Both the position numbers and the translations under genes were made by a program. This document shows positions 33,112 through 63,362 of a stretch of 64,000 nt of DNA, one piece after another. The notes under the pieces are model-generated. The model did no database searches and was not told where the DNA came from. It saw nothing but the letters and a program-made list of their open reading frames with translations. The stretch's first letter is position 1. Each line of letters starts with the position of its first letter. Source of the stretch: Brachyhypopomus gauderio (taxonomy: Eukaryota; Chordata; Actinopteri; Gymnotiformes; Hypopomidae); contig NC_135218.1 in NCBI RefSeq assembly GCF_052324685.1, positions 12,314,858-12,378,857 of the forward strand. The letters are read 5' to 3'.

Positions 33112-33819
33112 ATCATCCTACCCCATCCAGAGCTTAGATCTGACAACCACTACATTTTTATTGTATTACTAATATTATCCTTAACAGTTTCTTGAAACCT
33201 GTGACTTGATCTTCAGATCTGCACTAAATTAAATGTATTCTTGGCATTGTTTGAGATGTATGAAGACTTCTATGCCAAATTCAAGATGAAACTTGCAAAG
33301 ATTGTTTGTCACGTTGCTGTTTCTTTTATGATGACACATTGAAATTTTATTTATAATAAAACAAATCATGGTGTATATTTGTGAATCATTAAGGCATTTA
33401 TTTATTTATTTTTGACGATTTCTAAGGACTCCTCTGCTAGTGAGTACTAACTGAATGCTTGGCAGTGGAACATTGTTAGGATTACGTATGTCTTTCCATA
33501 TGTTTAGGTTCGGACATAATTAGTTTCTTAATGAACATGAAGTTGATGGACACGGGCGCCAAGCCTTCTGCGAAAGTTGGGAAACCTGCCGGCAGTATGA
33601 GATAGCCACCGTTAATTCCTTCCATATGGCCACGGGCCCAAGAATACCATTCACTCTGAAAACACTATTGCTCAATAACTACTTTGAATTGGTAGACTAG
33701 ACTGAAAGCAGCCTGTTCGCAGACTGAATGCGCGCTCTAAGCTGCGGGGTCGCCAAACATCTGCACGAGCGTGTATATGGGAAGCAGCGCGAGCGACTTT
33801 TCCATCGGATAATGTCATC

Positions 33820-36647
33820 ATGAAGGGGGAGTTCGGAATTGTCTTCCTGCTTCTCGCCACTGTCGCTTATGGTAGGTACGAAGTTCTCACTACATATATA
33901 GCCTACTAGATATATTTCTGAACCTATACCCATAAGATGTTCAAAAACCTACTTTCAGCTTTACTTTTCAGTAAAGAGTTTTGCAGAAAACATGAACTCA
34001 GGCTCTACAGTGAAGAGCAGCTCATTTTGCTGTAATTAACCTGACACCAATTTAAAAAAAACATTCTTGCTGCTATTTTGTATAGTTTTAAAACTCACCT
34101 ACAAAGTTGATGAAAGAACAGCTGGCAAATTTCAAATTGTTTTTTAGTTAAATTGTTTAAATCAATCTAAATTAGGAATCTTATGTGTATGTCCTAGATT
34201 TAGATTTAATATATTAAGCCATACAACTGTCTGCAAGATGTAGTAATACATTTCAATGACACATAAAGAATTTTTTTAGCCCATCTATGCTTCAGACCAG
34301 TCTCATACTGCCAGTTGGTATTATGTGTTACACACGTGGTTCTGTTTTCCAGCTAAGAAGATGCGTTGGTGCACAGTATCTGAGCTAGAACAGAGGAAGT
34401 GTGCAGACTTGGCTAAAGCACTGGTGGCTTCCTTACCTCCGGCTGCGGTCACAGCCTTTGCCCGACTGTCCTGTGTACGGGCCTACAGCACAGCCGACTG
34501 TATCAGTAAGATACGGGTGAGTCACTAGTCTTCATGCAAGGCACTTCATACTAGAGAAATATATTGGTATTACCATAAAAAAAATAAAGCTCAGAACAAA
34601 AATAAATCCTATTCCTGGCCTGCACTTGCCGTTTTCATGTCACCTCAGGCCAATAAAGCTGACCTGGTGACTCTGGATGCTGGAGAGGTCTACTCTGCAG
34701 TAAAGCAGTTCGGTCTGACAGCAGTTGCAAAGGAGATCTACAGTGATGGTAGAGAATTATTATTATCATAATTATTATCTAAACCAAAACATTTGTCTCT
34801 CATCAACATGCATAATGCATAAATATGAAAAACTGCAAGCAGTGATCATTTTAGCAGATCCTCTTTATGTTGAATTTTCATCACTGTTGCACATAAGCAA
34901 TGCATGCCATTAAGTTTGATGAAATTGATGCATAGAAATGTATTTCTGAAGACACTGCCAGTTTGTTCAAATGCTTTGCACCGTTTGTCAGGCAGCTGTA
35001 TTCTGGCAGTGGCAGTGGTGAGAAACAGCAGCTCATTAGACATCCGCTCTCTGAAGGGATCGAGGAGTTGTCACAGTGGGGCTCGATGGACTGCTGGCTG
35101 GAGTCTGCCTTTAGGACACCTCCTTTCTCGTAACTACCTGCTTTGGGAAGAGGAACAGCCCCTCAGTCAGGGTAATTAGTTTGCTTGTTATGTAGTAAAC
35201 CTGGAAACAGAGAATCAGCTTAAAATGGAATTTACACCAAATACACATTTAGCCAGTTAAAATTACTTATAATATCCTCGTTATATCATCGTCCTATGTT
35301 CAGTTCAGATGAATGAGTTGTATGTGGTTATGTTTTACCTACATGTGTTAATTACATTTGTATGATATCCTATATTGATTGCCAGTCTCGAGGCTAAGAG
35401 AATGCTCCATCTGTATATGTGTGTTTTGCATCTCTGTGTGAGTATCTGTGCTCCGTCTGTGTGTCTGTGTGTGCTCCATCTGTGTGAATGTGCTGTGTGT
35501 GTGTGTGTCTGTGCGTATGTGCTCTGTCTGTGTGTGCGTGTGTGTGCCAGCCATCAGGGCCTTCTTCAGTGCCAGCTGTGTGCCAGGCGCAGCTGCCATG
35601 GCACTCAGTTTGTGTTCCCAGTGCCAGGGTCAAAGGTCTTACATCCCACAGAAGAACTTCTATTGTGAAACTTCTCACAGTGAACCATTCTATCACAACC
35701 AAGGGGCACTCAGGTTTAAAACCTCTCACATGCACACATGCATACACGCACTAACACACCCTTGATGGTACAAAAAGAAACACATATATACAGACACACA
35801 CACACAAACTGTGTGGTAGCATGGCAAATGCATCTACTTTGTTTGGCGCTTTCTCCTGGTTTCTCTAAGGTGTCTGCAAACAGGAGCAGGAGACGTGGCC
35901 TTTGTGGACCATACGGCTTTTGATGTGTTAGATGGTAATACAATGTTATTGTATATAATAATACATTATAATAATACATTATTTAAAATGTATTTTAAGG
36001 TCCTGCTCATGCTGCCTTGTTCTGGAGTTAACCTTATGGCAGAGACTTTACTGTATGACATGTAATGCTTTTTCATACCCTTTCTGTCCCCCTTTCTGCC
36101 ACGCCCTCTTTTTCCATTGCCCTCTACAGCAAGAGAGAAGGAAGAGTACAAGTTACTGTGCACAGATGGTACACAGGCTCCGCTCAGCCATTTCAGGAAG
36201 TGCAATCTAGGGCGTGGCCCTGGCGGAGGTGTGGTCACGCGAGTCAACCACCGCAAGATTGTCCGCAAATTTCTAATAGCTGCTCAGGTAATTTCTGCGA
36301 GCCACGTGTGTTCTCTTCACCGAGAATGTCTAAGTGTTTCATAATAGTTTACGAATCTGTTTATTAGACAGCGTTTGGCTGGCAGGGACGAGACCGTCAA
36401 CGTTTCCAGCTTTTTAATTCATCACATTATGGAGTGAGTGACCTGCTCTTCAGAGATGTGACTGCCAAACTGTCTGTCCTGCAAGAAGACGTAGACATCA
36501 ATCGGCTTCTCGGTCTGGACTATGTGGCTTTACTCAAAGGCCTCAGACATGAAGGTACCGTCTATCCCAGCCATCTTAATGTGTCTTAATAGCTATAGAT
36601 TTTTGTGTATTAGTATTTTACTTGTATTTTTTAGTTCTCATTCTCTG

Positions 36648-36685
<38 letters not shown>

Positions 36686-39590
36686 GGAGTTCTCTAGAGG
36701 ACAGCGTGGTAAGGTGGTGCTGTATAAGTCATGCTGAACAGAAGAAATGTGAGCAGTGGGCCTTCAACATAAAGTCTGACCCTCTTGTATGTGTCAGAGC
36801 ATCTTCCATGAGCGACTGCATCGAGAAAGTCAAGGTGCAGTATGATGAAACAAGTACTTACTGGCTTCTTATGTACAACAGGCAGAGACACTTTCACATG
36901 AACGCAGCACAGCACTGTCCCCTGATGTCCTCTGTCCTCCAAGGTAAAGTCTGTACCACAAAATAGATGAAGCATAAGCTTCAACTCACAGGGCTTTTTT
37001 GTGTCTTCATGCAGAGGGATGAGGTAGATGCTGTCTCCCTGGATGCTACACACTCCTTCATTGCTGGGAAATGTGGTCTTGTCTCGGTAGTGACTGAATA
37101 TTATGGTAAATACGATGTCTTTATTTATGTCCTTTGTGTTCTGTTTTTTTCACCTGCTCTGTCTAAAGCTTTTCTTTTGTTGTTGTTCTTGTACACTGTT
37201 CTGGCCATAAGGGACGAAGTGTGAATTTACTGATGGAGGAAATGGCCATTTTGAGACTAAAGGTAAAAATCAACCTATTTTCTAATTGAAAGACACATGT
37301 ACCAAAACTGTGGTATAACGAAAGTATATTTACATTTGTTTACATTTATGGCATTTAGCAGACGCTAAATAATGTAGTATACGCATAAATCACATATATA
37401 TCACAAACAATATATTCATTTGATATAAAAAAGGGTTTTCATTTATAAATGAACTATGGACTTGCATACATCATGCTTGAATACATTTGTGTAACTTTCA
37501 AGCCTTCTGCACAGAAGGTTATAATGTGATGACACACATAAAAACCCAGAAAAATAAATAAATGCTTTTTGTCCATGTAGACTTGCCATCAGTGTATAGT
37601 GTGGCAGTGGTACGTCGCTCCAGTAGAAATGTATATTTTGGGAATATGGGTGGTCGACGCTCCTGTCACGGTCATATGTACAGTCCTGCAGGATGGGTAC
37701 TGCCTGTGAAACATACACTGAGCACAGAACACAACAACAGCGCCACTTGTGAGCCAAACAAAGGTACTACAGCTCTCCCTAAAATATTAAGAATATTGCA
37801 AGCATTTGTAGTTAATCTTCACTATTTGTATATGAAAGCACTGCAAGGTAACTAATACTAGATGCTAGAGTGTTTTGAATGCCTGTGCTTGTCCTGTGAT
37901 CTTAGTTTACTCTGAGGTATTTTGGAAGGGCTGCTTGCCAGGAGCTCAGGGCAGCCTGTGTAAGGTGTGTGTAGGTGGCACAGAGGAGGCTGCCACCAAA
38001 CGCTGCTCTGACAACCACAATGAGCGCTACTATGGCAACCTTGGAGCATTGCGGTGAGTGAATGCCACTGTTTGCCAGGTGGCATTTCAGAACCATGTTT
38101 CAGAATGTCATCGTCATTCCAAAAGAGCATATTGCTACATAACAATGCTGCCTCCCTCTTAGGTGTCTGGTTGGAGACCCCAGTGGCAAGAGCTATGGGG
38201 ATGTAGCATTTATGGAACACCACAACCTAGAGAGCAACATTAAATGTAGGCTGCATTACAGTTTTATACACTGACGTGTTGGATGTAGTTTGCTACTGTT
38301 TAATTTCTTTTGCTAATCATGTTTATTGTTTGGAGCAGGTGGGGTAGAGTTGGTGGTAAAACCTTCCACATAATGTATTTACCTGGATACTGTATATTTC
38401 ACAAACCATTGTGTCGATCACTTCATTGAGACTCATAGTGAATGTATGATAATTAATCCAAATTGGGTCTCACATTTTTTTAAAACATATCAATTAAAAT
38501 ACGTGTGGAGAGGTGTGGTCACCATAATAGATTAAGACTGCATTACCTTAAAGTAGCTTTGAAATACATTTTAGAGCTTGTTACCATCATCACACAAGTG
38601 ATGCCATTATTACTCTACCGGAGGGCAGACCTAAACAGCAGTGGCTGGGCAGAGGGCTGGCTTCCCTGGGATTTTGAGCTGCTGTGTGGGGACGGAAGGA
38701 GAGTTCCTGTGGTGGAGTGGAAGAACTGTAATCTGGGAGCGGTCCCACCCAACACCGTCATGACCCGACCTGTACTCACTGCTCGCATCTACGATTTCCT
38801 CATGAAGTCACAGGTCGCCGCATTACTGGGTCAAACGCTTCACAAAATGAGCCTCGTGCACTTTCTAGAATGTGAAGATTATTATTTTTATGTAATGAAC
38901 ATATATTATCATGACATTATAATACTATATCATAATATGTAAAATGACTGTCATTTTGGGTTAGCGAAAATAAAAGTTCTCAGACTTCTCAGGTTGATCA
39001 GTATCTTCACATCTTCATAATACATAATGCTTCCCATGAAAATATAGTAGATCTCAAAGAACACAGTATATCAGTAAATATGACAGACGTGGACATTCAC
39101 AAATGCTGATCGCTGATCGTGTCTTTGTTACCTGTTCCCAGGAGACCATGGCAGCACACCCTGAATCCGAGTTCAAGCTGTTTGAGTCTCAGCAATATGG
39201 AGAAAGTGACCTGCTCTTCAAAGATGCAACTCAGTGTCTGGTCCACACCAGCCATTTGGACTACCGCACTATACTGGGAGAAGAGTTTTATTCACAGGCA
39301 GAAAATATCTTTAACTGCACACATTCAGGTGAGATTGAATTCACATATATTGCTGGATATATTGCTGGATGATTGTCAACACTTCATACCCTGACAACCT
39401 TTGGAGTTCTCTGGCATTTTCTTATTAACTCATATTAATAGTATGATACAATATTAAAAGAATATATTACATAAATGAAGAAAGTTCAAAATGTAGATTT
39501 TTCATAATGGAATTGGTGAAAATTGTCTTCTTTTTGACAGATATCCTGAGGTTTTGCAACCAAGATGTGTGTAGCATATTCTCATTCTGA
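33820..39590 (+). CDS. transferrin-family secreted protein with degenerate iron sites
   Basis: Two-lobed secreted transferrin relative. Exons: 33820-33871, 34353-34516, 34649-34748, 34992-35171, 35551-35713, 35870-35934, 36130-36287, 36368-36554, 36686-36834, 37015-37105, 37212-37262, 37581-37763, 37906-38053, 38163-38245, 38629-38813, 39142-39328, 39541-39590. Phases agree; 731 aa with a signal peptide (MKGEFGIVFLLLATVAYA). Lobe signatures: RWCTVSELEQRKC, GSRSCHSGARWTAGWSLP, AGDVAFVDH; second lobe RWCCISHAEQKKC, IAGKCGLVSV, ERYYGNLGALRCLVGD, LLFKDATQCL. The tail CTHSDILRFC resembles serotransferrins and ovotransferrin, with no GPI-type hydrophobic end as in melanotransferrin. By alignment to human transferrin from memory, the liganding Asp stays in each lobe (TLDAG, SLDAT). 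Both Tyr and the His are replaced in each (N-lobe Ile, Asn, Gly; C-lobe Val, Asn, Asn), and the carbonate-anchoring Arg is Trp or Ser. Iron binding is therefore unlikely. Which named paralogue it is remains open. AATAAA at 39639-39644. Confidence 0.88.
35440..35548. repeat. imperfect TG-rich tract abutting transferrin-like exon 5
   Basis: An imperfect TGTGTG/CTCCATCTG repeat running to two bases before the acceptor CCAG at 35550. Confidence 0.8.
36646..36684. repeat. TG microsatellite abutting transferrin-like exon 9
   Basis: About 19 TG units continue directly into the acceptor TGTAG at 36685. Confidence 0.95.
37325..37375. repeat. short fragment of a common fish interspersed repeat
   Basis: Contains TTTATGGCATTTAGCAGACG, a sequence I recognise as recurring across fish genomes. 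Only this core is visible. Confidence 0.5.
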
Positions 39591-39799
39591 AAATGACACA
39601 ACATTTTCTCCCTTATGTTAAATAATTTCCCAATGCACAATAAATTCCCACTCTCCTGCTTTACTGGTGCAATTTATTGGGTGCTTTAACTACGCAGGAA
39701 TGAATGCTGACTAGTAGAGTTGTTAAAAATGACAAATACATAAATGACATTTTGTAAGTGATCAGTCACAACCCATCAAGAATGAATTCGCCAACGAAT

Positions 39800-43946: not shown

Positions 43947-44873
43947 GTGCTGTATAATAAGCTTGTTGGCGTTTTAATGTACATATATTGGCACCTTCCA
44001 CACCTTCAACATCCTATGTGCTACGAGGTTAAGATGACTATTCACCTGGCCATTGGGGTCATGGTGTTCATCTGGGTGAAGTCCATCCTTTTAGCTCTTA
44101 TCACTATGCTCGGCTGGCCAGCATACGGGAACCAAAGTTCCATCGCGGCCGCCCATTGCTCTCTGCATTGGAGCCATAGTCGTCTCAGGAAAGTGTTTGC
44201 AGTGCTGTTCTTCCTGGTGTGCTTTCTGGTTCCTGCGGTCGTGATCTTCACCGTGTACTGCAACGTCTACAAAGTCGCACGAACCGCCGCCCTCCAGCAC
44301 ACGCCCGTGCCCACCTGGGCCGTCGATCGGGCTAAGTGCCGCTCGGACTCCATCAACAGCCAGACCACCATCATCACCACCACCCGCAGTCTGCCTCAGA
44401 GACTGTCCCCAGAGAGGGTGTTTGGGGGTAGGAAAGCTGCCATCACCCTCGTGGTCATCGTGGGGCAGTTCCTGCTGTGCTGGCTGCCGTACTTCAGTTT
44501 TCACCTGCACATGTCCATCACCGCCCCGCTCCAGAGCCCGGGAGATGTAGAGGAGGCCGTCACCTGGTTGGCGTACTCCTCTTTCGCGGTGAACCCATTC
44601 TTCTACGGCCTGCTCAACAGGCAGATCCGCGAGGAGCTCGTCAACCTGAGAAGGTGCTGTGCTCCCCACCTGCCCGTGGAACTTGGAGCCTCGAGTCATG
44701 AAGGATCCATCCAGGAGAACTTTCTGCAGTTCCTGCAGAGGACGAACAGCGCAGTTGAGACCACCAAGTCCAGCTGTGCGAACTCCAGTCTTAGGAATAC
44801 CTGTGTAAACTCCAGCCCTAAAAATACCTTGGACCATGGGGTTAGAATACCTGGGGAGATACCTGAAGAGTGA
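43947..44873 (+). pseudogene. GPR61-like receptor fragment, TM4 to C-tail only
   Basis: Similarity to the orphan class A receptor GPR61 begins at HPMCYEVKMT (44010), just after the position of the ERY motif at the end of TM3. It includes TM4 (AIGVMVFIWVKSILLALI), TM5 (VFAVLFFLVCFLVPAVVIF), an intracellular loop with SDSINSQTTIITTT, TM6 (FLLCWLPYFSFHLHM), TM7 (NPFFYGLLNRQIREEL) and the tail EGSIQENFLQFLQRTNSA. TM1-TM3 are absent upstream, where the hAT composite ends at 43626. The tail stops at IPGEIPEE, about two dozen residues short of human. The 285 receptor-like codons carry no internal stop, so this is either a young truncated duplicate or the last exon of a split gene. AATAAA lies at 44888-44893. 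Confidence 0.7.
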
Positions 44874-47652: not shown

Positions 47653-48145
47653 GTAAAGACATTGTTAGAGGTGACACAGGTATAATAAGTATGAACTCCT
47701 AATAATTATATTATTTCTTTAAGTGATAGAATATTTAAAAGTTAAATCACACTAAATAGTATATGTCTTTTATATCCAGCAGTTTCAAAAACTGAGGAAA
47801 TACGTTAATAAAATAAAATAAAAAATAAATAAAATGAAATAAAAAGGAAAATAAAATAAATAAAAGGATAAATAAATAAAATAAAAGGAAATAAAACGTT
47901 AGCTGGTACTCCAAAATGGATATCCTCATTTCACCTCCTCGACCCAACACACTCTACAATCACACTCAAATGTTATATTTAACCAATGCTTAGCTACCCC
48001 GCAAAAACATTGCGTTTAGGTGAAATGGCATTAAGAGAGGAATTTACAATTAATAGGCTGTCAGTCGTTAATGTGAAATCTCGCTAACCGTATTCGCGTT
48101 GTCTTAGCATAGATTTAGTTCCGGCATCCTGGAGAACACTGGGGG
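47653..48145. other. AT-rich spacer with an AAATA-type simple repeat
   Basis: About 47805-47895 is an AAATAAAA-rich low-complexity stretch. No gene recognised. Confidence 0.6.
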
Positions 48146-48149
48146 CGTC

Positions 48150-48500
48150 TACGGGCGGCGGCCACAGGCAGCTGTGTCACCGTCGCCTCTGAGACGGGCG
48201 GCTGCGTTACGGGCGGCTGCGTTACGGGCGGCTACGTGACGGGCGGCTGTGTTATAGACGGCGTCACGGGCACGGTCACGGGCCGCGTCACGGGCACGGT
48301 CACGGGCCGCATCACGGGCCGCGTCACGGGCCGCGTCACGGGCTGCGTCACGGGCCACGTCACGAGCCGTGGCATGGGCCATGTCACGGGCAGCGGCACG
48401 GGCGGCGGCACGGGCGGCGGCACGGGCGGCGGCACGGTCACGGGCGGCGGCACGGTCACGGGCGGCGGCACGGTCACAGGCGGCATCCTGGGCAGCCGGG
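48150..48500. repeat. GC-rich CACGGGCGGCG-type minisatellite
   Basis: Tandem units related to GTCACGGGC and GGCGGCACGG, extremely CpG-rich against the AT-rich flanks. All short open frames here encode simple repeats (Ala-Arg-Asp, Pro-Val-Thr or Thr-Gly, depending on frame and strand), so none is called as a gene. Confidence 0.85.
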
Positions 48501-48938
48501 GCGGCGTCCTGGGGAGCCAGATTCACGGGCGCAGTGTCCTGGGCTGCATCCTGGGGAGCCTGGGTGGTGTCATGGGGAGGCCTTCTTAGCTGAGGAACGG
48601 AAAGGTTTGTACTTTTACCAAATCTATCACGCATATACAGGCTGTGGACATCTGAACTGGGTTGGGAGAAAATTTATGCTTTTTTTCCACTAACCGCTAA
48701 AGGTGAGAATAGTATTGGTCAGAGATTTCAATCGTAATATCCTCAGATGGTTTTAATCCCTCAAACTTAATCACACCAAAAGCTAGACATATTCCCCGTA
48801 AAATTACCTGTCTCCGCCCCTGACGTAAAACAGCATCATGAACACTTTCGTATATGAAAGCCAGTGCCGCTTAGTTCATGATAGTCATTTTGGATAAATC
48901 ATTTACACAATCTATTTTGCAACAACCTGAATTGTAAT

Positions 48939-54693: not shown

Positions 54694-55497
54694 TCATAAT
54701 GCAACACAGGGTAAAACAACAGTATCTTTTGAAAAACTGAGCTCAGTTAAAACTGCTTGTTGGCTAAATTTGTCTCTCAAAAGCTCAGTCCATCGTTCTA
54801 TAAATATGTGGATTTCAGACCACAGTACTTCAGGAAAACTGAATGAGTAAAGACAAGTGCCATGCCTACAATCTCCTATCTGTGAGCAAACCCAAGCCTT
54901 ATTCACCACCAGTGGAGTCATACTCAGACAGTTCTCCAAACTCTGGGCTTGATCAAACCAGTAAGAAGCAGGATAGCCCAAAAGGATCCCAAAAAGGGTA
55001 CACAGATTCCAGTTACCACACATGTCCTCTCCCAACCCAATGACTGTTGAATATTTGTTCTCATTGTCCATGAAGAACTTTAAAATGTCCTTGACCATAT
55101 CCTCAGTGCTCTTGTCCATGGCAGTAATGCATGGCTCTTCCCTCCAGGGACACACATCAATACTGATGAGATTCCTGCTTTGGAGCAGTTCTTCAAGGTG
55201 TAACTTCATTAATTTAGAGTTAACTACAAGAGTACTCCCACTGATAGACACCACCTGCAGTTCTGTGGTCAGCAACCCAATCCCGAACAAGGAGTTCACG
55301 TACTGATGCACTTGTTCTGAAGATGCTGAATTACTGTCATACAAAAGAGCAGGTTTAAGGCCCAGGTCCACCGCTATAATCTGGACAGCCACATCAAGAC
55401 ATGTTGATATTGGAAGTCGTTTCTTCTTTCTCCCACGGCAAAGAAACTTATGGGCAGTTGAGATGAAGAGGTCTGCTGAAACCACCATCGTTCCCAC
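54694..55497 (-). CDS. UPF0739 family protein, C1orf74 homologue
   Basis: Intronless frame of 267 aa on the minus strand, the usual length for this family (about 269). I recognise it from ALLYDSNSAS, the VVSISGSTLVVN segment, ISIDVCPWREEP, and CTLFGILLGYPASYWFD followed by SLENCLSM. The ending is VVLPCVAL. The function is unknown; no catalytic motif or membrane segment stands out. It is divergent with rft1 (681 bp between start codons) and convergent with sirt4, so its promoter probably lies in the shared gap. The first Met of the frame is used; M5-like alternatives (MVVSADLF) are only four codons inside. Confidence 0.85.
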   Translation of the reverse strand: MGTMVVSADLFISTAHKFLCRGRKKKRLPISTCLDVAVQIIAVDLGLKPALLYDSNSASSEQVHQYVNSLFGIGLLTTELQVVSISGSTLVVNSKLMKLHLEELLQSRNLISIDVCPWREEPCITAMDKSTEDMVKDILKFFMDNENKYSTVIGLGEDMCGNWNLCTLFGILLGYPASYWFDQAQSLENCLSMTPLVVNKAWVCSQIGDCRHGTCLYSFSFPEVLWSEIHIFIERWTELLRDKFSQQAVLTELSFSKDTVVLPCVAL

Positions 55498-56177
55498 TCT
55501 TGAAGACCAGACACGAACACAATATGAGGGAATCTCGGAATAATGACTGGTTTACGTTCTGTCGCAGCTAGCTAGCTAACATGACAGTATTTAGTTGTTG
55601 TACCCGAAGACGTTGTGGAAAAAAACAGACAGGTAGCTATTAAGATACTAAGAATTTCAACAAAATCTCCCAGCTTTTTAGCCAACCAACTTTCTGTTCA
55701 ACTAGTTATCGAAGCTACATAGTGCACGCATTCTAGTTTGAACATTTTGCAAACGTGGTTACGAAGCATCAAAATAAAGGTCTCACATGTCACGTGGTCT
55801 CACATGTCACATGTTTTAAAATACAACTAATACCCACACAAAATATAGTCACAAGTTAATACGATATCCTAACGAATTTATATAAAGTCTGTGATTGTTC
55901 TGATATATATTTAAGCACGATTTTAATGCTGCCTATATCGTGTGTATGCTTTTATTATGAAATAAATTCATGACGTTCGTTTTCAATAAGTAAACGTATG
56001 TTTTGGCTGTCACAGCTATCTCACTAGCTATATTATGAGCATTTTCTATGGTTTTAGATAATTAATGCTAATGTATGTAGGTTAGCAGTGCAGGTCGTAG
56101 TTTATGCGATGACACGTTAGAAAATATAATAGTAATTTTATCTCCGTGGTGTGCATTAGCTTAAATCGGTCTTTATC
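55498..56177. promoter_or_regulatory. shared divergent promoter gap, C1orf74 homologue / rft1
   Basis: A 681-bp gap between opposite start codons. It contains an overlapping 17-bp-period duplication, GGTCTCACATGTCACGTG then GGTCTCACATGTCACATG (55779-55813). The first copy holds a CACGTG E-box, and the CACATG in the second is a one-base variant. Confidence 0.5.
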
Positions 56178-57715: not shown

Positions 57716-59375
57716 CATGTATGTGTGTGTGTAGCCTGTGATCAACTGGAAACTTGCCACACTGACTTGGAGTTTCTTCAAGCAGTCCTTTCTCAAACAG
57801 ATACTTACAGAAGGTAATACACATACACTAACATCAATGGTCTGACGTGTATTTATCTGTAACGGCATGTTGAACGTTTTAAGAGACTTTGAGGAAATTT
57901 ATGTTGCAGGGGAGCGCTACGTAATGACCTTTCTGAACGTTCTCAACTTTGGAGACCAGGGTGAGTGTGTTGGTCAGGAAACTAATACAACTACATACAA
58001 GTACACAAATAGAAATGAAATTAAAAAGTACACAAACAGCTTTCTGTGGTCTTTAGGTTGGGCTTACATTCTGCATGCTTGTGTTTTCTGTGTAGGGGTA
58101 TATGATATAGTGAACAATCTTGGCTCGATGGTGGCTCGGTTCCTGTTTCTGCCCATTGAGGAGAGTTTCTATGTTTTCTTCGCCAAAGTGTTAGAGCGAG
58201 GACGGGAAATAAAGGATCAGAAACAAGTCTGTACATTCAATCACATATCCCCTTAGTCTGGACCCTCGGGCAGCTCAAAACTTGGATGACATTGGTGCGT
58301 GTTACTTGGTCCACAGGATGACGTTTTCATAGCAGCAAATGTACTGGAATGTTTACTGAAGCTGGTTCTTCTGATTGGTCTGATTATCACTGTATTTGGT
58401 TACTCCTACTCTCACCTGGCTCTTCATATATATGGAGGGGAACTTTTGAGCAGTGGGACAGGTATAGCCTGCACACATTATGAACTTTACAATGTCTTTT
58501 AAAATGTACTTAAGAATAGCATAGATATATTTGCATATACAATTTAGCATTTAATGGTAATGTATGATATTGGACTGTGTGTGTGTGTGTGTGTTGCAGG
58601 GCCTACTCTTCTAAGGTGCTACAGTTTTTATGTACTTCTTTTAGCCTTGAATGGCATAACAGAGTGTTTTGTTTTTGCTGCCATGAGCAAGGAGCAGGTG
58701 GACAGGTAAGAATATGTCCCATTCTAAATGCTGAAAGTGTAGATCTAAGCATAAGTGTATTCACACATTAACAATCGTTTTAATAAGTTCTTTCGGTAAC
58801 AAAAAGAATTCTAGATGCTGCTTTTTTGTTTTGTAATGTTTTCAAAATATAGGGGTCTCCTGTTCATTTGCAGGTATAACCTGATGATGCTGGCACTGTC
58901 CGCATCCTTTCTACTGATTTCCTATTGGCTGACTTGCCTGTTGGGGAGTGTGGGCTTCATCCTGGCAAACTGCTGCAACATGGCTCTCCGAAGCATACAT
59001 AGTCTTGTGTTCATACACCGCTACTTCAGACACAGTGACCACACCCCTCTGTCTGGGCTCTGCCCAAATTCAGCTGTTCTGATCGCCCTCACGATAAGCT
59101 CCATCCTCACAGCCTTTTCAGAGGTAAAGCTGTATATGTGGTATTTACTACTATTTGAATATGAGTTGTGTAAAATCAGTGCTTCTAAAAATTGTTTTCT
59201 TTGTGTATTTCAGCATATATTCTGTGACGGTGGCTGGTTGCTAAGGCTGGCTCATGTCGCCGTGGGAGCTGTTTGTTTACTAGGTGTGTTCATTGTAGTG
59301 TTTCTTACAGAAACGAGACTTGTCCAGTTCATCCGAACCCAGCTGCAACCCAAATACAGCAATAAACAGACATAA
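56178..59375 (+). CDS. rft1: RFT1, ER membrane protein of N-glycosylation
   Basis: RFT1 is an ER multi-pass protein needed for translocation or handling of Man5GlcNAc2-PP-dolichol in N-glycan assembly; its direct flippase role is debated. Thirteen exons: 56178-56240, 56432-56517, 56592-56711, 56841-57030, 57144-57245, 57322-57456, 57735-57813, 57910-57960, 58096-58226, 58317-58461, 58600-58705, 58874-59123, 59214-59375 (TAA). All phases agree; 539 aa, against 541 in human. Family blocks: [84 protein letters not shown]. Many hydrophobic helices are evident. Intron 4 appears to use a GC donor (AAAG|GCAAGC at 57031). Acceptors of exons 7 and 11 directly follow TG runs. A small palindromic MITE sits in intron 1. 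Confidence 0.96.
56255..56362. mobile_element. 108-bp palindromic MITE in rft1 intron 1
   Basis: Arms CTGGGGTGGGTTTCCCGAAA and TTTCGGGAAACTCACCCCAG, with AGCGCTAAGTACTT inverted further in. It can fold almost end to end. It begins only 15 bases after exon 1. No clear target duplication was seen. A diverged relative lies in a sfi1 intron (about 31730-31930). Confidence 0.8.
57673..57733. repeat. TG microsatellite before rft1 exon 7
   Basis: About 20 TG units, a TATGCATGTA interruption, then further TG units leading into the acceptor GTAG at 57734. Confidence 0.95.
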
Positions 59376-60656: not shown

Positions 60657-63362
60657 ATGTCTCAGGTATGTGAAAGCTACTTATTAGAGCGCCAACGCAG
60701 TCATCATCAGGAGAGGAACTTATCTTTCCTGATGTCTAGCTTCAGGAGGAGGGAGAGGAGAAAATTAACAGACCAGAGATGAAAGAGGAGGATCTGATTC
60801 AAGCAAAGGACAATCTGGCATCTGGGACACAAGTGAAGAGTAAGACCTTCGAGGTGATGGAGGAATGTGGTGAGTACAGCTCGTGAAATTACAGCAGCTC
60901 AGGTTCTGTGAAGTGTGTGTGTATGTGTGTGTCCAGCGACAGTGCTGCTCAGGAAGTTTCTGTGGACCCATTTGTTTGGGTAGGTTTGACAAATGTGTGC
61001 CTCAGCTAGGCTTCCTGATGTTTCCTGTCCATATAAAGTAGTACAGGGCCTGGAGACTGGGGTACACAGGCATACACTCTCTCACACACATGGTGGACAG
61101 TGAAGGAGTGGTTATGGAGATGACTATAGCCTGGAGACTGGGGTACACAGGCATACACTCTCTCACACACATGGTGGACAGTGAAGGAGTGGTTATGGAG
61201 ATGACTATAGCCTGGAGACTGGGGTACACAGGCATACACTCTCTCTCACACACATGGTGGACAGTGAAGGAGTGGTTATGGAGATGACTATAGCCTGGAG
61301 ACTGGGGTACACAGGCATACACTCTCTCACACACATGGTGGACAGTGAAGGAGTGGTTATGGAGATGACTATAGCCTGGAGACTGGGGTACACAGGCATA
61401 CACTCTCTCACACACATGGTGGACAGTGAAGGAGTGGTTATGGAGATGACTATAGCCTGGAGACTGGGGTACACAGGCATACACTCTCTCACACACATGG
61501 TGGACAGTGAAGGAGTGGTTATGGAGATGACTATAGCCTGGAGATTCCACTAGCTGAGTGTAAAATTATTATTGTCACCTAATTGCTAGCTCTGTCAAGC
61601 TTAATATCATAATATTAAAAGAGAGTGTGAAATGAGAGCACTTTGCACAGCTAATGGAAGGACCTCTTTCCAAATGTAGTGCACTTCAATACACACACAC
61701 ACACACACACACACACTGGAGATCAAAATTAGAGAACGACAAATTTACTAAATGTCAAGGTCATTGACTAACCATATGTGAAATTATCCTAACAGGAGTG
61801 AAATTGCAGTATGTTAAGCTTATTTCATACATTGTATATATTCTAAATCACAGCATAAAAATTTAAATGATATACTTGAAAAAGAGCACTGATCAAAATT
61901 AGAGAATACTTTCAGATACCCGCAAGTTATTGGTGTTAACCTATTTAACTGGCAGACTAACCTTCCAGTTTTCACTGAGTTTGCAAAAATGGTGAGCTAC
62001 AGTGACTAAAACCCTTCGGCAGCAGGCTATCTAGCTGAAGGCCAAAGAGATTATCCTGTCACAACCATAGCAAGTATGTGATTTCTAGAATATTGCTTCT
62101 TTAGATCACAAACTCATTCAAATCCCCCAAGATGGCTGGTTGCCCACAAAAGACAAATGCAAGAGAAGACAGGATAATATAGTGAATCTCCATGGATAAT
62201 TGGTTCAACACTGCAGCTGGAATTGCTCACAAGTTCAACACTGAACAGGCTAAGGATCTGTCTAGTCATACAGTGTCTTTAAGAACATTTGGACTGAGAG
62301 CCCACTATGCCGTGACTAAACCTCTCATTAGCAGAAAGAATCAAAAAGCAAGACTCACCATTGTTGACCATGTGTGGACAGAAGAGAAGTGGCCAAGAGT
62401 TCATTTTAGTGATGAAAGCACTAATGGGAAGGGTCTGATGGGAAACATTGTTGACAAACAGGGGAAAGACTGAACTCAAAGTGTGTAAAGAAGTCAGTGG
62501 AGGAGGAAGTGTCATGGTTTGCTGAATGTTTTCGGCAGCAGGAGTTGGACTTCTCGTACAGTTACAAGGCAGAGTGAATGCCAGTGTCTTCAGAACCTTC
62601 AACACCACGTGGTTCCTTTCTTGCATTTAATCAGCCAGCAATTTTCATGCATGACAATGCTCCAGTCACATAGCAAAATGGGCAATATCTTGAAATTGAA
62701 AACACTGAAACAATGAAATGGCCAGCCCAGAGTCCTAATCTAAACTCAATAGACAACCTCTGGAAAATCTTTGGTGACCGTTATGGCCAAGAAACCCTCA
62801 AGTCACAGAACTGTGGAAGAGTGGACCAAAATCCCACCAGAGCAGTGTGAGAGACTAGTGATGTCCTGTGGCCACAGATGTATTGGTCATTCAAAGGCCT
62901 GTACACTCCCTACTGATTACTGACTGTTGGAACCTTCAGAAAATTTGGTTGTAATCTTACTGTTAGTCATTGTGATCATAATTATAGAACAGCATTTTTG
63001 CTAAATGTTGATATACTTTGTTTATTTTGTAAATCATTGTTTTAGAGGCATGGTGTACCCTTATAATAATAATCTTTATATAATAATCTTTCAAATGTTG
63101 ATCAATATAGATTGTTTCTGGAAAAAAATACAAGTACATTGTTCTCAAATTTTGATCTCCTGTGTGTGTGTGTGTGTGTGTGTGTGTTTATATATTACAC
63201 ACCTGTTAGCCTCATTAAATGACTCAAGGCTCTGTTAACTATTAACCTGTCAATGTATGTGTTCTGCCACCAGAGCGTACTGGCAAAGTGGCTCCATCTG
63301 TGTTCAGTAATGTTCGCTCAGGAGCAGAGACCGCCTTCAACAAACCCAGCAGAAGAAAATAA
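60657..63362 (+). CDS. mustn1: MUSTN1 (mustang), small musculoskeletal nuclear protein
   Basis: Small protein linked in vertebrates to muscle and skeletal development and regeneration. Three coding exons: 60657-60665 (MSQ only), 60746-60869 and 63274-63362 (TAA). Phases agree; 73 aa (human 82). Family blocks: RPEMKEEDLIQAKDNLASG, VKSKTFEVMEECE, VAPSVFSNVRSG and ETAFNKPSRRK. Charged and without membrane segments. The nine-base first coding exon explains why the start is easily missed; MSQ followed by GTATGT matches the family's MSQ start. Intron 2 (60870-63273) has been expanded by an 81-bp minisatellite and a Tc1 remnant. AATAAA at 63374-63379. It is next to rft1, as on human 3p21. Confidence 0.92.
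61049..61540. repeat. 81-bp minisatellite in mustn1 intron 2, six units
   Basis: Units begin with CCTGGAGACTGGGGTACACA at 61049, 61130, 61211, 61294, 61375 and 61456. One unit is 83 bp through an extra TC in the TCTC run. Because 81 is a multiple of three, long repetitive frames stay open on both strands; these are not genes. Confidence 0.97.
61716..63162 (+). mobile_element. decayed Tc1/mariner transposon in mustn1 intron 2
   Basis: The terminal inverted repeats are TGGAGATCAAAATTAGAGAAC at the left and GTTCTCAAATTTTGATCTCC at the right. The interior encodes broken Tc1 transposase on the plus strand: AHYAVTKPLISRKNQKARLT, DHVWTEEKWPRVHFSDES, LWKIFGDRYGQETLKSQ, and, near 62840-62870, residues matching the Tc1 ending EQCERLVMSCG. 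Several frame changes and stops make it inactive. The flanks are CA and TG microsatellites, so the TA target duplication cannot be read. The copy is nearly full length (1.45 kb). Confidence 0.88.

What the first reader, a model, noticed from the sequence alone, without database searches (positions are those of the whole stretch)
33820..39590. Intact two-lobed transferrin relative that has lost its iron and carbonate ligands in both lobes
Seen: 17 exons in perfect phase and a full-length 731-aa protein with a signal peptide and most lobe cysteine context. Known: transferrin lobes bind iron with Asp, Tyr, Tyr, His plus an Arg-anchored carbonate. Inferred by aligning motifs from memory: only the Asp is kept in each lobe; the others are Ile, Asn, Gly with Trp for Arg (N-lobe) and Val, Asn, Asn with Ser for Arg (C-lobe). 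Loss of the same sites in both lobes with the frame intact suggests a new binding role, as in non-iron transferrin relatives such as saxiphilin and inhibitor of carbonic anhydrase.
Basis: partly seen in the sequence, partly recalled or inferred. Interest (0 to 1): 0.78.

Follow-up and report, generated by a model that had tools for sequence, protein, structure and literature searches.

The report
Iron-less two-lobed transferrin in fish
This fish gene appears to make a complete, secreted relative of the blood iron carrier transferrin that has kept the folded shell but lost nearly all the parts that hold iron in both halves, so it probably does some other binding job.

Summary
Observation confirmed. 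A 17-exon gene at 33820-39590 (+) encodes a transferrin-family protein, 731 aa in my model; exon 11 and the end of exon 12 are uncertain but hold no ligand site. No second copy was found in its ~797 Mb genome. Only the Asp of each lobe survives: 2 of 12 iron/anion sites. Cysteines conserved in transferrins: 28 of 28 in my model, 26 if the two uncertain exon edges are wrong. New: the pocket lysine of each lobe (K206/K534 type) has become acidic.

It is not melanotransferrin, otolith matrix protein or, by the AU test, a branch of the same fish's serum transferrins. A sister relation to frog saxiphilin is possible but unresolved; it lacks thyroglobulin domains and matches 0 of 4 saxitoxin-fingerprint residues.

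Most likely: a soluble secreted binding protein that does not carry iron; ligand unknown, perhaps cationic. No orthologue, expression or structure could be examined. Iron-less transferrins are known; the lineage is the news.

The parts
33820..39590 (+). whole coding gene, 17 exons, 731 aa in my model, start codon to stop codon
33820..33871 (+). exon 1: signal peptide MKGEFGIVFLLLATVAYA (likely cleavage after residue 18, by eye)
   Evidence: read by eye, not found by the spliced alignments
34353..34516 (+). exon 2, start of mature N-lobe
34649..34748 (+). exon 3; retained N-lobe Asp82 (human-type D63) at 34676-34678
34992..35171 (+). exon 4; Ile109 for Tyr95 (35000-35002), Ser134 for Thr120, Trp138 for Arg124 (35087-35089)
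35551..35713 (+). exon 5; Asn215 for Tyr188 (35697-35699)
35870..35934 (+). exon 6; Asp233 for pocket Lys206 (35907-35909)
36130..36287 (+). exon 7; Gly274 for His249 (36225-36227)
36368..36554 (+). exon 8, end of N-lobe; donor placed further down by the blind runs
36686..36834 (+). exon 9, start of C-lobe; extra Cys369
37015..37105 (+). exon 10; retained C-lobe Asp416 (human-type D392) at 37042-37044
37212..37262 (+). exon 11, short C-lobe loop exon with Cys440; edges uncertain
37581..37763 (+). exon 12; Val458 for Tyr426 (37592-37594), Gly484 for Thr452, Ser488 for Arg456 (37682-37684); donor may be 37748, which would drop Cys510
37906..38053 (+). exon 13; Asn559 for Tyr517 (38037-38039)
38163..38245 (+). 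exon 14; Glu582 for pocket Lys534 (38215-38217)
38629..38813 (+). exon 15; Asn633 for His585 (38751-38753)
   Evidence: acceptor used by 10 of 11 queries
39142..39328 (+). exon 16
39541..39590 (+). exon 17 and stop; extra Cys726
39639..39644 (+). candidate polyadenylation hexamer AATAAA, about 50 bp after the stop
   Evidence: motif match only

Best explanation
An intact, secreted, two-lobed transferrin paralogue, with no second copy found, that no longer binds iron in either lobe. It lies on the serotransferrin-saxiphilin side of the family but branched off long ago. The disulfide-built lobes and clefts were kept, while the iron tetrad, the carbonate anchor and part of the basic second shell were replaced, leaving two clefts with a retained Asp, a conserved Glu and a new Asp or Glu in place of the pocket lysine. 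The likeliest mechanism is a soluble plasma or mucosal binding protein whose cleft or surface holds something other than ferric carbonate, possibly a cationic small molecule, much as saxiphilin uses a transferrin C-lobe to hold a cationic toxin. Shown: gene structure bar two exon edges, ligand loss, cysteine retention, distinctness from MTf and OMP. Inferred: secretion, no iron binding (about 0.95), constraint on the protein (about 0.9), a small-molecule binding role (about 0.35), a cation in particular (about 0.2). The confidence below is for a secreted, functional, non-iron transferrin lineage, ligand unspecified.
For: Gene model and spliced-alignment check, no stops with 11 queries. Pfam Transferrin 1.5e-142 in two stretches. 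Ligand table: 2 of 12 kept, versus 12 of 12 in fish TfA and TfB with Lys counted as Arg at N R124. Columns invariant in six Tfs, not Cys and not ligand: 129 of 193 kept, so ligand loss is disproportionate (Fisher p = 8e-4). Cysteines 28 of 28 in my model, 26 if the uncertain edges of exons 11 and 12 are wrong. K206/K534 types acidic, R124/R456 types lost. 14 of 14 inner intron junctions match the fTfB model within 4 columns and in phase. Placement with the fish Tf array rejected by AU in four runs, p 0.002-0.007. No other copy among the scored candidates.
Against: No orthologue was available, so constraint rests on one sequence. No expression data, no structure. The branch is the longest in the bilobal tree (about 1.15), and outside the ligands it keeps fewer Tf-invariant columns (67%) than saxiphilins (78 and 81%) or melanotransferrins (74 and 77%), which could mean relaxed constraint. 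The SH test rejects the fish-Tf placement in only one of the four runs. The charge argument uses recalled pocket positions; two basic residues there stay basic (R323, K680) and a new Arg137 sits next to Trp138. Melanotransferrin shares 11 of the 14 inner junctions, so intron layout is weakly diagnostic. Bilobal and lobe trees disagree about saxiphilin.
Confidence: 0.72

Rival explanations
1. It is the ray-finned-fish member of the saxiphilin lineage, without the two thyroglobulin domains, and works as a carrier or sponge for another cationic small molecule.
For: Bilobal ML tree groups it with the two saxiphilins, 93.8/72. Replacement residues shared with bullfrog saxiphilin: Ser120, Asn188, Gly249, Asn517; with Nanorana saxiphilin: Ser120, Asn517. 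Saxiphilins keep only 3 and 4 of 12 ligand sites, Lys counted as Arg. Their thyroglobulin domains fall near the exon 3/4 border here (N-lobe match of the unaltered query resumes at residue 107 or so; chain gap about 110-255; the query had such domains put in at that place by me). A salmon gene is called saxiphilin-like (PMC8202022, passages seen).
Against: Support falls to 43/37 without ligand columns and their neighbours. AU does not separate it from the MTf-side/outside placement or the tetrapod-Tf placement. The lobe tree puts saxiphilin lobes with the Tf lobes and both window lobes outside, weakly so for the N-lobe. No thyroglobulin domain by Pfam, no CWC motif nearby. Saxitoxin fingerprint 0 of 4. 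Long-branch attraction possible.
Confidence: 0.3
2. It is a protein-binding transferrin, working through its surface, like inhibitor of carbonic anhydrase, or a decoy for microbial transferrin receptors; the clefts are simply dead.
For: Cysteine framework kept with the cleft ligands lost; a dead cleft needs no ligand.
Against: Both pocket lysines turned acidic, though that is two events. No interaction data. ICA was not compared at residue level here.
Confidence: 0.25
3. It is a matrix or biomineral protein, like otolith matrix protein, a transferrin-fold scaffold without iron.
For: This fish's OMP model keeps only the first Tyr of the six ligand and anion sites; cod OMP also keeps one Tyr (PMC3125230 section 5) and OMP acts in otolith growth (same paper, section 8 part 1).
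Against: The fish has a separate OMP model on C14; the window gene is bilobal and falls apart from OMP in the lobe tree. Calculated mature pI 7.5, not the acidic make-up I recall for mineral proteins.
Confidence: 0.1
4. It is a young, decaying duplicate of serum transferrin.
For: Fast branch; this genome does scatter partial transferrin copies.
Against: No stop or frameshift and all splice sites in my model; 36-37% identity to the fish Tfs; fish-Tf placement rejected by AU, though not by SH in three of four runs.
Confidence: 0.05

Closest known systems
Serum transferrin / ovotransferrin
   Same: Two lobes, conserved cysteines (28 of 28 in my model), 14 of 14 inner intron junctions of fTfB, signal peptide; the three best PDB hits are ovotransferrins
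   Different: Only the Asp of each lobe kept; carbonate Arg and Thr lost; pocket Lys turned acidic; 36-39% identity
Saxiphilin (frogs)
   Same: Most iron ligands lost in both lobes; Asn at the second Tyr of the C-lobe; Ser for the N-lobe anion Thr; fewer basic residues in the C-lobe cleft
   Different: No two thyroglobulin-1 domains; saxitoxin fingerprint 0 of 4; saxiphilin has Cys at 25 of the 28 columns (one miss may be an alignment shift, and the Nanorana tail was not printed); sister relation not established
Otolith matrix protein (fish)
   Same: Transferrin fold, most ligands lost
   Different: OMP is monolobal and sits with melanotransferrin in the lobe tree at weak support; this fish has a separate OMP model on C14
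Melanotransferrin
   Same: Bilobal family member; cod and human forms each have one lobe short of iron ligands; shares 11 of 14 inner junctions
   Different: Keeps 11 (this fish) or 9 (human) of 12 sites; no short exon 11 in my model; separate gene at C8:16.96 Mb
Inhibitor of carbonic anhydrase (mammals)
   Same: Bilobal transferrin relative with a non-iron role (recalled); a PDB hit of this query
   Different: Not compared residue by residue; recalled as a mammalian offshoot of transferrin

Membership tests
Transferrin family (PF00405) | profile match over two lobes | tested here: met
   1.5e-142, two stretches
Transferrin family (PF00405) | conserved disulfide cysteines | tested here: met
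   28 of 28 columns that are Cys in at least 6 of 7 Tfs, in my model; Cys440 and Cys510 depend on uncertain exon edges, so 26 of 28 at the least
Iron-binding serotransferrin | Asp, Tyr, Tyr, His plus Arg and Thr in each lobe | tested here: not met
   2 of 12 kept
Iron-binding serotransferrin | gene layout: matching intron places and phases | tested here: met
   14 of 14 inner junctions of my model match fTfB within 4 alignment columns, same phase; fTfB lacks the signal and last exon in my model and has one extra junction; the TfA model, with a frameshift mark, has shifted phases. Melanotransferrin shares 11 of 14, so weakly diagnostic
Saxiphilin | two thyroglobulin type-1 domains in the N-lobe | tested here: not met
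   Pfam finds none in the protein; no CWC motif in six frames of 33701-39700
Saxiphilin | saxitoxin fingerprint Glu, Asp, Asp, Tyr (bullfrog 540, 785, 794, 795) | tested here: not met
   Thr, Ser, Thr, Ile: 0 of 4; fingerprint from PMC12022044 section 9 in Nanorana numbers. The bullfrog numbers and the 19-residue offset are my inference, and the alignment near 785-795 has gaps
Saxiphilin | monophyly with frog saxiphilins | tested here: inconclusive
   best tree in some settings, not significant, weak without ligand columns, not supported by the lobe tree
Otolith matrix protein | single lobe, OMP lineage | tested here: not met
   two lobes; apart from OMP in the lobe tree; separate OMP model present
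Inhibitor of carbonic anhydrase | inhibits carbonic anhydrase | not testable with these tools
   needs an assay; the letters of 3mc2 were not printed for comparison

The most novel reading that the evidence does not exclude
A deep, separate bilobal transferrin lineage in ray-finned fishes, older than the split of fish serum transferrin from tetrapod transferrin, in which both clefts were turned from an anion-and-iron site into acidic pockets that carry a cationic small molecule: a second small-molecule transferrin, parallel to or sharing an ancestor with saxiphilin and not needing thyroglobulin domains.
Probability: 0.18. Interest if true: 0.75.

Novelty: new member of a known kind. Interest (0 to 1): 0.45.

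Why it matters
Transferrin is a textbook iron carrier, and the few relatives that dropped iron (saxiphilin, inhibitor of carbonic anhydrase, otolith matrix protein) show that the fold can be given other work. A fish lineage with both lobes emptied, the disulfide framework kept and the pocket lysines turned acidic in both lobes would be a natural experiment on what a transferrin cleft can hold besides iron. If it is saxiphilin's fish cousin, it would suggest that iron was lost before the thyroglobulin domains and saxitoxin binding were gained, and make the origin of saxiphilin testable. The Atlantic cod paper lists four transferrin genes of three types (PMC3125230, section 5) and none is of this type.

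Tried and rejected
First exon 15 start (38575) gave a stop at the 14/15 join and was replaced by 38629. Young duplicate of serum Tf: rejected by AU, not by SH in three of four runs. Melanotransferrin or OMP identity: rejected by separate genes and ligand patterns. Saxitoxin binder: not supported. Thyroglobulin remnant near the gene: no CWC motif. Orthologues by scans of viral and bacterial collections: none in viral contigs; 4 pattern matches in genome contigs, none a relative. A mixture-model run used a malformed constraint for one tree; that row is void and was redone. In one search, topologies 2 and 5 resolved to the same tree, so they are one placement. Left out of the trees: the partial Tf copies on C3, C12 and C17 and the partial C19 genes D and E; TfC was cut at 560 residues, and in the lobe tree both TfB lobes and the TfC C-lobe were dropped. 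Structure prediction was not asked for: its stated rule takes only proteins given letter for letter by the DNA, and this protein is spliced. Inhibitor of carbonic anhydrase could not be brought into the alignment because its letters were never printed. Hughes and Friedman 2014, probably the key family paper (known to me from recall and a reference list), is not held.

Full report
What is there. The plus strand from 33820 to 39590 holds a 17-exon gene, all 16 introns GT-AG, coding for 731 amino acids in my model. I checked it by splicing 11 other transferrin-family sequences onto the raw DNA without showing the aligner my model. None gave an internal stop; 3 of 11 needed a frameshift mark, in runs that put exon 11 elsewhere. 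They matched 8-13 of 16 acceptors and 7-13 of 16 donors, the signal exon being out of reach. The 38629 acceptor that my first manual join had missed is used by 10 of 11. Two places stay uncertain. Exon 11 is placed differently by almost every query. The exon 12 donor is 37748 in 8 of 11 and 37763, my choice, in 2 of 11. I chose 37763 and 37212 because serum transferrin exons carry a conserved Cys just there (Cys510, Cys440). No ligand site is touched. The protein has a signal peptide by eye, a calculated mature mass of 79.1 kDa, pI 7.5 and five N-glycosylation motifs. Pfam gives Transferrin at 1.5e-142 in two stretches, plus a weaker phosphonate-binding-protein match, which fits the periplasmic-binding fold that transferrin lobes share (recalled). 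A candidate polyadenylation hexamer follows the stop by about 50 bp.

The ligand sites. I aligned the protein with three serum transferrin models and the melanotransferrin model of the same genome, chicken and duck ovotransferrin, pig and rabbit transferrin, two frog saxiphilins and human melanotransferrin (12 sequences in all). At the twelve iron and anion sites the window protein has D, I, S, W, N, G in the N-lobe and D, V, G, S, N, N in the C-lobe: 2 of 12 kept. Counting Lys as Arg at the N-lobe anion site, TfA and TfB keep 12 of 12, the same fish's melanotransferrin 11, human melanotransferrin 9, bullfrog and Nanorana saxiphilin 3 and 4. An Arg stands one place before the N-lobe anion Arg (R137) and a Tyr one place after the first C-lobe Tyr (Y459), but there is no gap between those sites and the next conserved motif, so a shift is not indicated.

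Fold kept, site lost. All 28 columns that are Cys in at least 6 of 7 transferrins are Cys in my model; two of them, Cys440 and Cys510, depend on the uncertain exon edges, so 26 is the safe figure. Saxiphilins and human melanotransferrin have Cys at 25 of the 28; one saxiphilin miss may be an alignment shift, and the end of the Nanorana sequence was not printed. Of 193 columns invariant in six transferrins, not Cys and not ligand, 129 are kept (67%) against 2 of 12 ligand sites, Fisher p = 8e-4. Saxiphilins show the same contrast (151 of 193, and 153 of 189, p = 2e-4 and 7e-4) and melanotransferrins do not. The window protein's 67% is the lowest of the five compared, which may mean some relaxation. 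Two extra cysteines, 369 and 726, have no counterpart in the other 11 sequences.

A new point: charge. The second-shell lysine K206 (human-type number; Lys in 10 of the 11 others, Arg in one) is Asp233 here, and its C-lobe counterpart K534 (Lys in 7 of 11) is Glu582, while the carbonate Arg is Trp and Ser. By formal count each cleft moves about three charges toward acidic at those positions, two if the neighbouring new Arg137 or rabbit's Asp634 is counted. K296 and R632 types stay basic (R323, K680). Saxiphilin loses basic residues there mainly in the C-lobe. The choice of pocket residues is from memory of transferrin structures, so this is a lead, not a measurement.

Its relatives in the same genome. 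The genome, unnamed but a fish by its gene content (inferred), was searched by family and modelled. It holds a serum transferrin array on C19 with three long models and two partial ones, melanotransferrin at C8:16.96 Mb, a monolobal otolith matrix protein at C14:21.18 Mb, and partial transferrin copies on C3, C12 and C17. Only the best candidates are scored in such a search. The window protein found no second copy of itself among 61 scored candidates. The Atlantic cod paper reports Tf1, Tf2, MTf and OMP (PMC3125230; abstract, section 5 and section 8 part 1 seen); this gene is none of those types.

Where it branches. In the bilobal tree it pairs with saxiphilin at 93.8/72, but only 43/37 once ligand columns and their neighbours are left out. 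Placement with the fish's own Tf array is rejected by AU in every setting (p 0.0024 and 0.0028 under LG+F+R3, 0.0055 and 0.0074 under LG+C20+F+G); the SH test rejects it only in the first (p 0.048; others 0.11, 0.11, 0.18). Placement with all Tf to the exclusion of saxiphilin is rejected with ligand columns (0.023) but not without (0.087). Placement with saxiphilin, with tetrapod Tf, or outside all Tf plus saxiphilin cannot be told apart. In the tree of single lobes, an edge of 90.8/92 puts the window N-lobe with the Tf and saxiphilin N-lobes, and one of 89.4/77 puts the window C-lobe with their C-lobes. Each stands outside them (45/72 for the N-lobes, 93.5/79 for the C-lobes); melanotransferrin and OMP stand apart at weak support. 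Long branches make attraction to the base likely. The bilobal tree also joins fish Tf with melanotransferrin (85.8/66), against the usual view, a warning about its deep nodes. In my model 14 of 14 inner intron junctions match fTfB in place (within 4 columns) and phase, including the short exon 11 that my melanotransferrin model lacks; melanotransferrin shares 11 of the 14.

Is it saxiphilin? The shared losses and a few shared replacement residues make that tempting. But there is no thyroglobulin domain, and the saxitoxin fingerprint Glu, Asp, Asp, Tyr (PMC12022044 section 9 read) reads Thr, Ser, Thr, Ile. The residue mapping uses a 19-residue offset that I inferred from a recalled mutant chain. 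Of eight pocket positions compared, four of them from recall, only the proline is kept. So it fails two defining features, and kinship is open. It may still work like saxiphilin, as a cleft that lost iron and gained another guest.

Literature. Ten library searches, not all aimed at this gene and several with capped listings, showed no title on this fish gene. The nearest trace is a salmon gene called saxiphilin-like among genes lowered in amoebic gill disease (PMC8202022, passages seen). Subscription papers, among them the main family paper, are not held, so absence in print is not shown.

Verdict. The kind is known, the lineage looks distinct, and interest is moderate because orthologues, expression and a ligand are all missing.

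Noticed in passing
A dispersed, possibly mobile, transferrin fragment.
   Followed up: partly
G000:C19:7.01-7.12 Mb (L009-L017, L025, L026): Tandem serum transferrin array; TfA and TfB genes 93% alike over 4.2 kb; the three long models have Lys for the N-lobe anion Arg, as reported for cod Tf1.
   Followed up: partly
window 4914-59375: Neighbours by Pfam: BTB/zinc-finger ORFs with a Patz-linked domain, a below-cutoff EIF4E-T match, a rhodopsin-type GPCR at 43947-44873, SIR2 exons from 52413, DUF4504 at 54694-55551, Rft-1 at 58815; useful for synteny (gene names PATZ1, EIF4ENIF1, SIRT4, RFT1 recalled).
   Followed up: partly
window 48119-48693 and 61002-61565: Repetitive ORFs on both strands, probably minisatellites rather than genes.
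   Followed up: no
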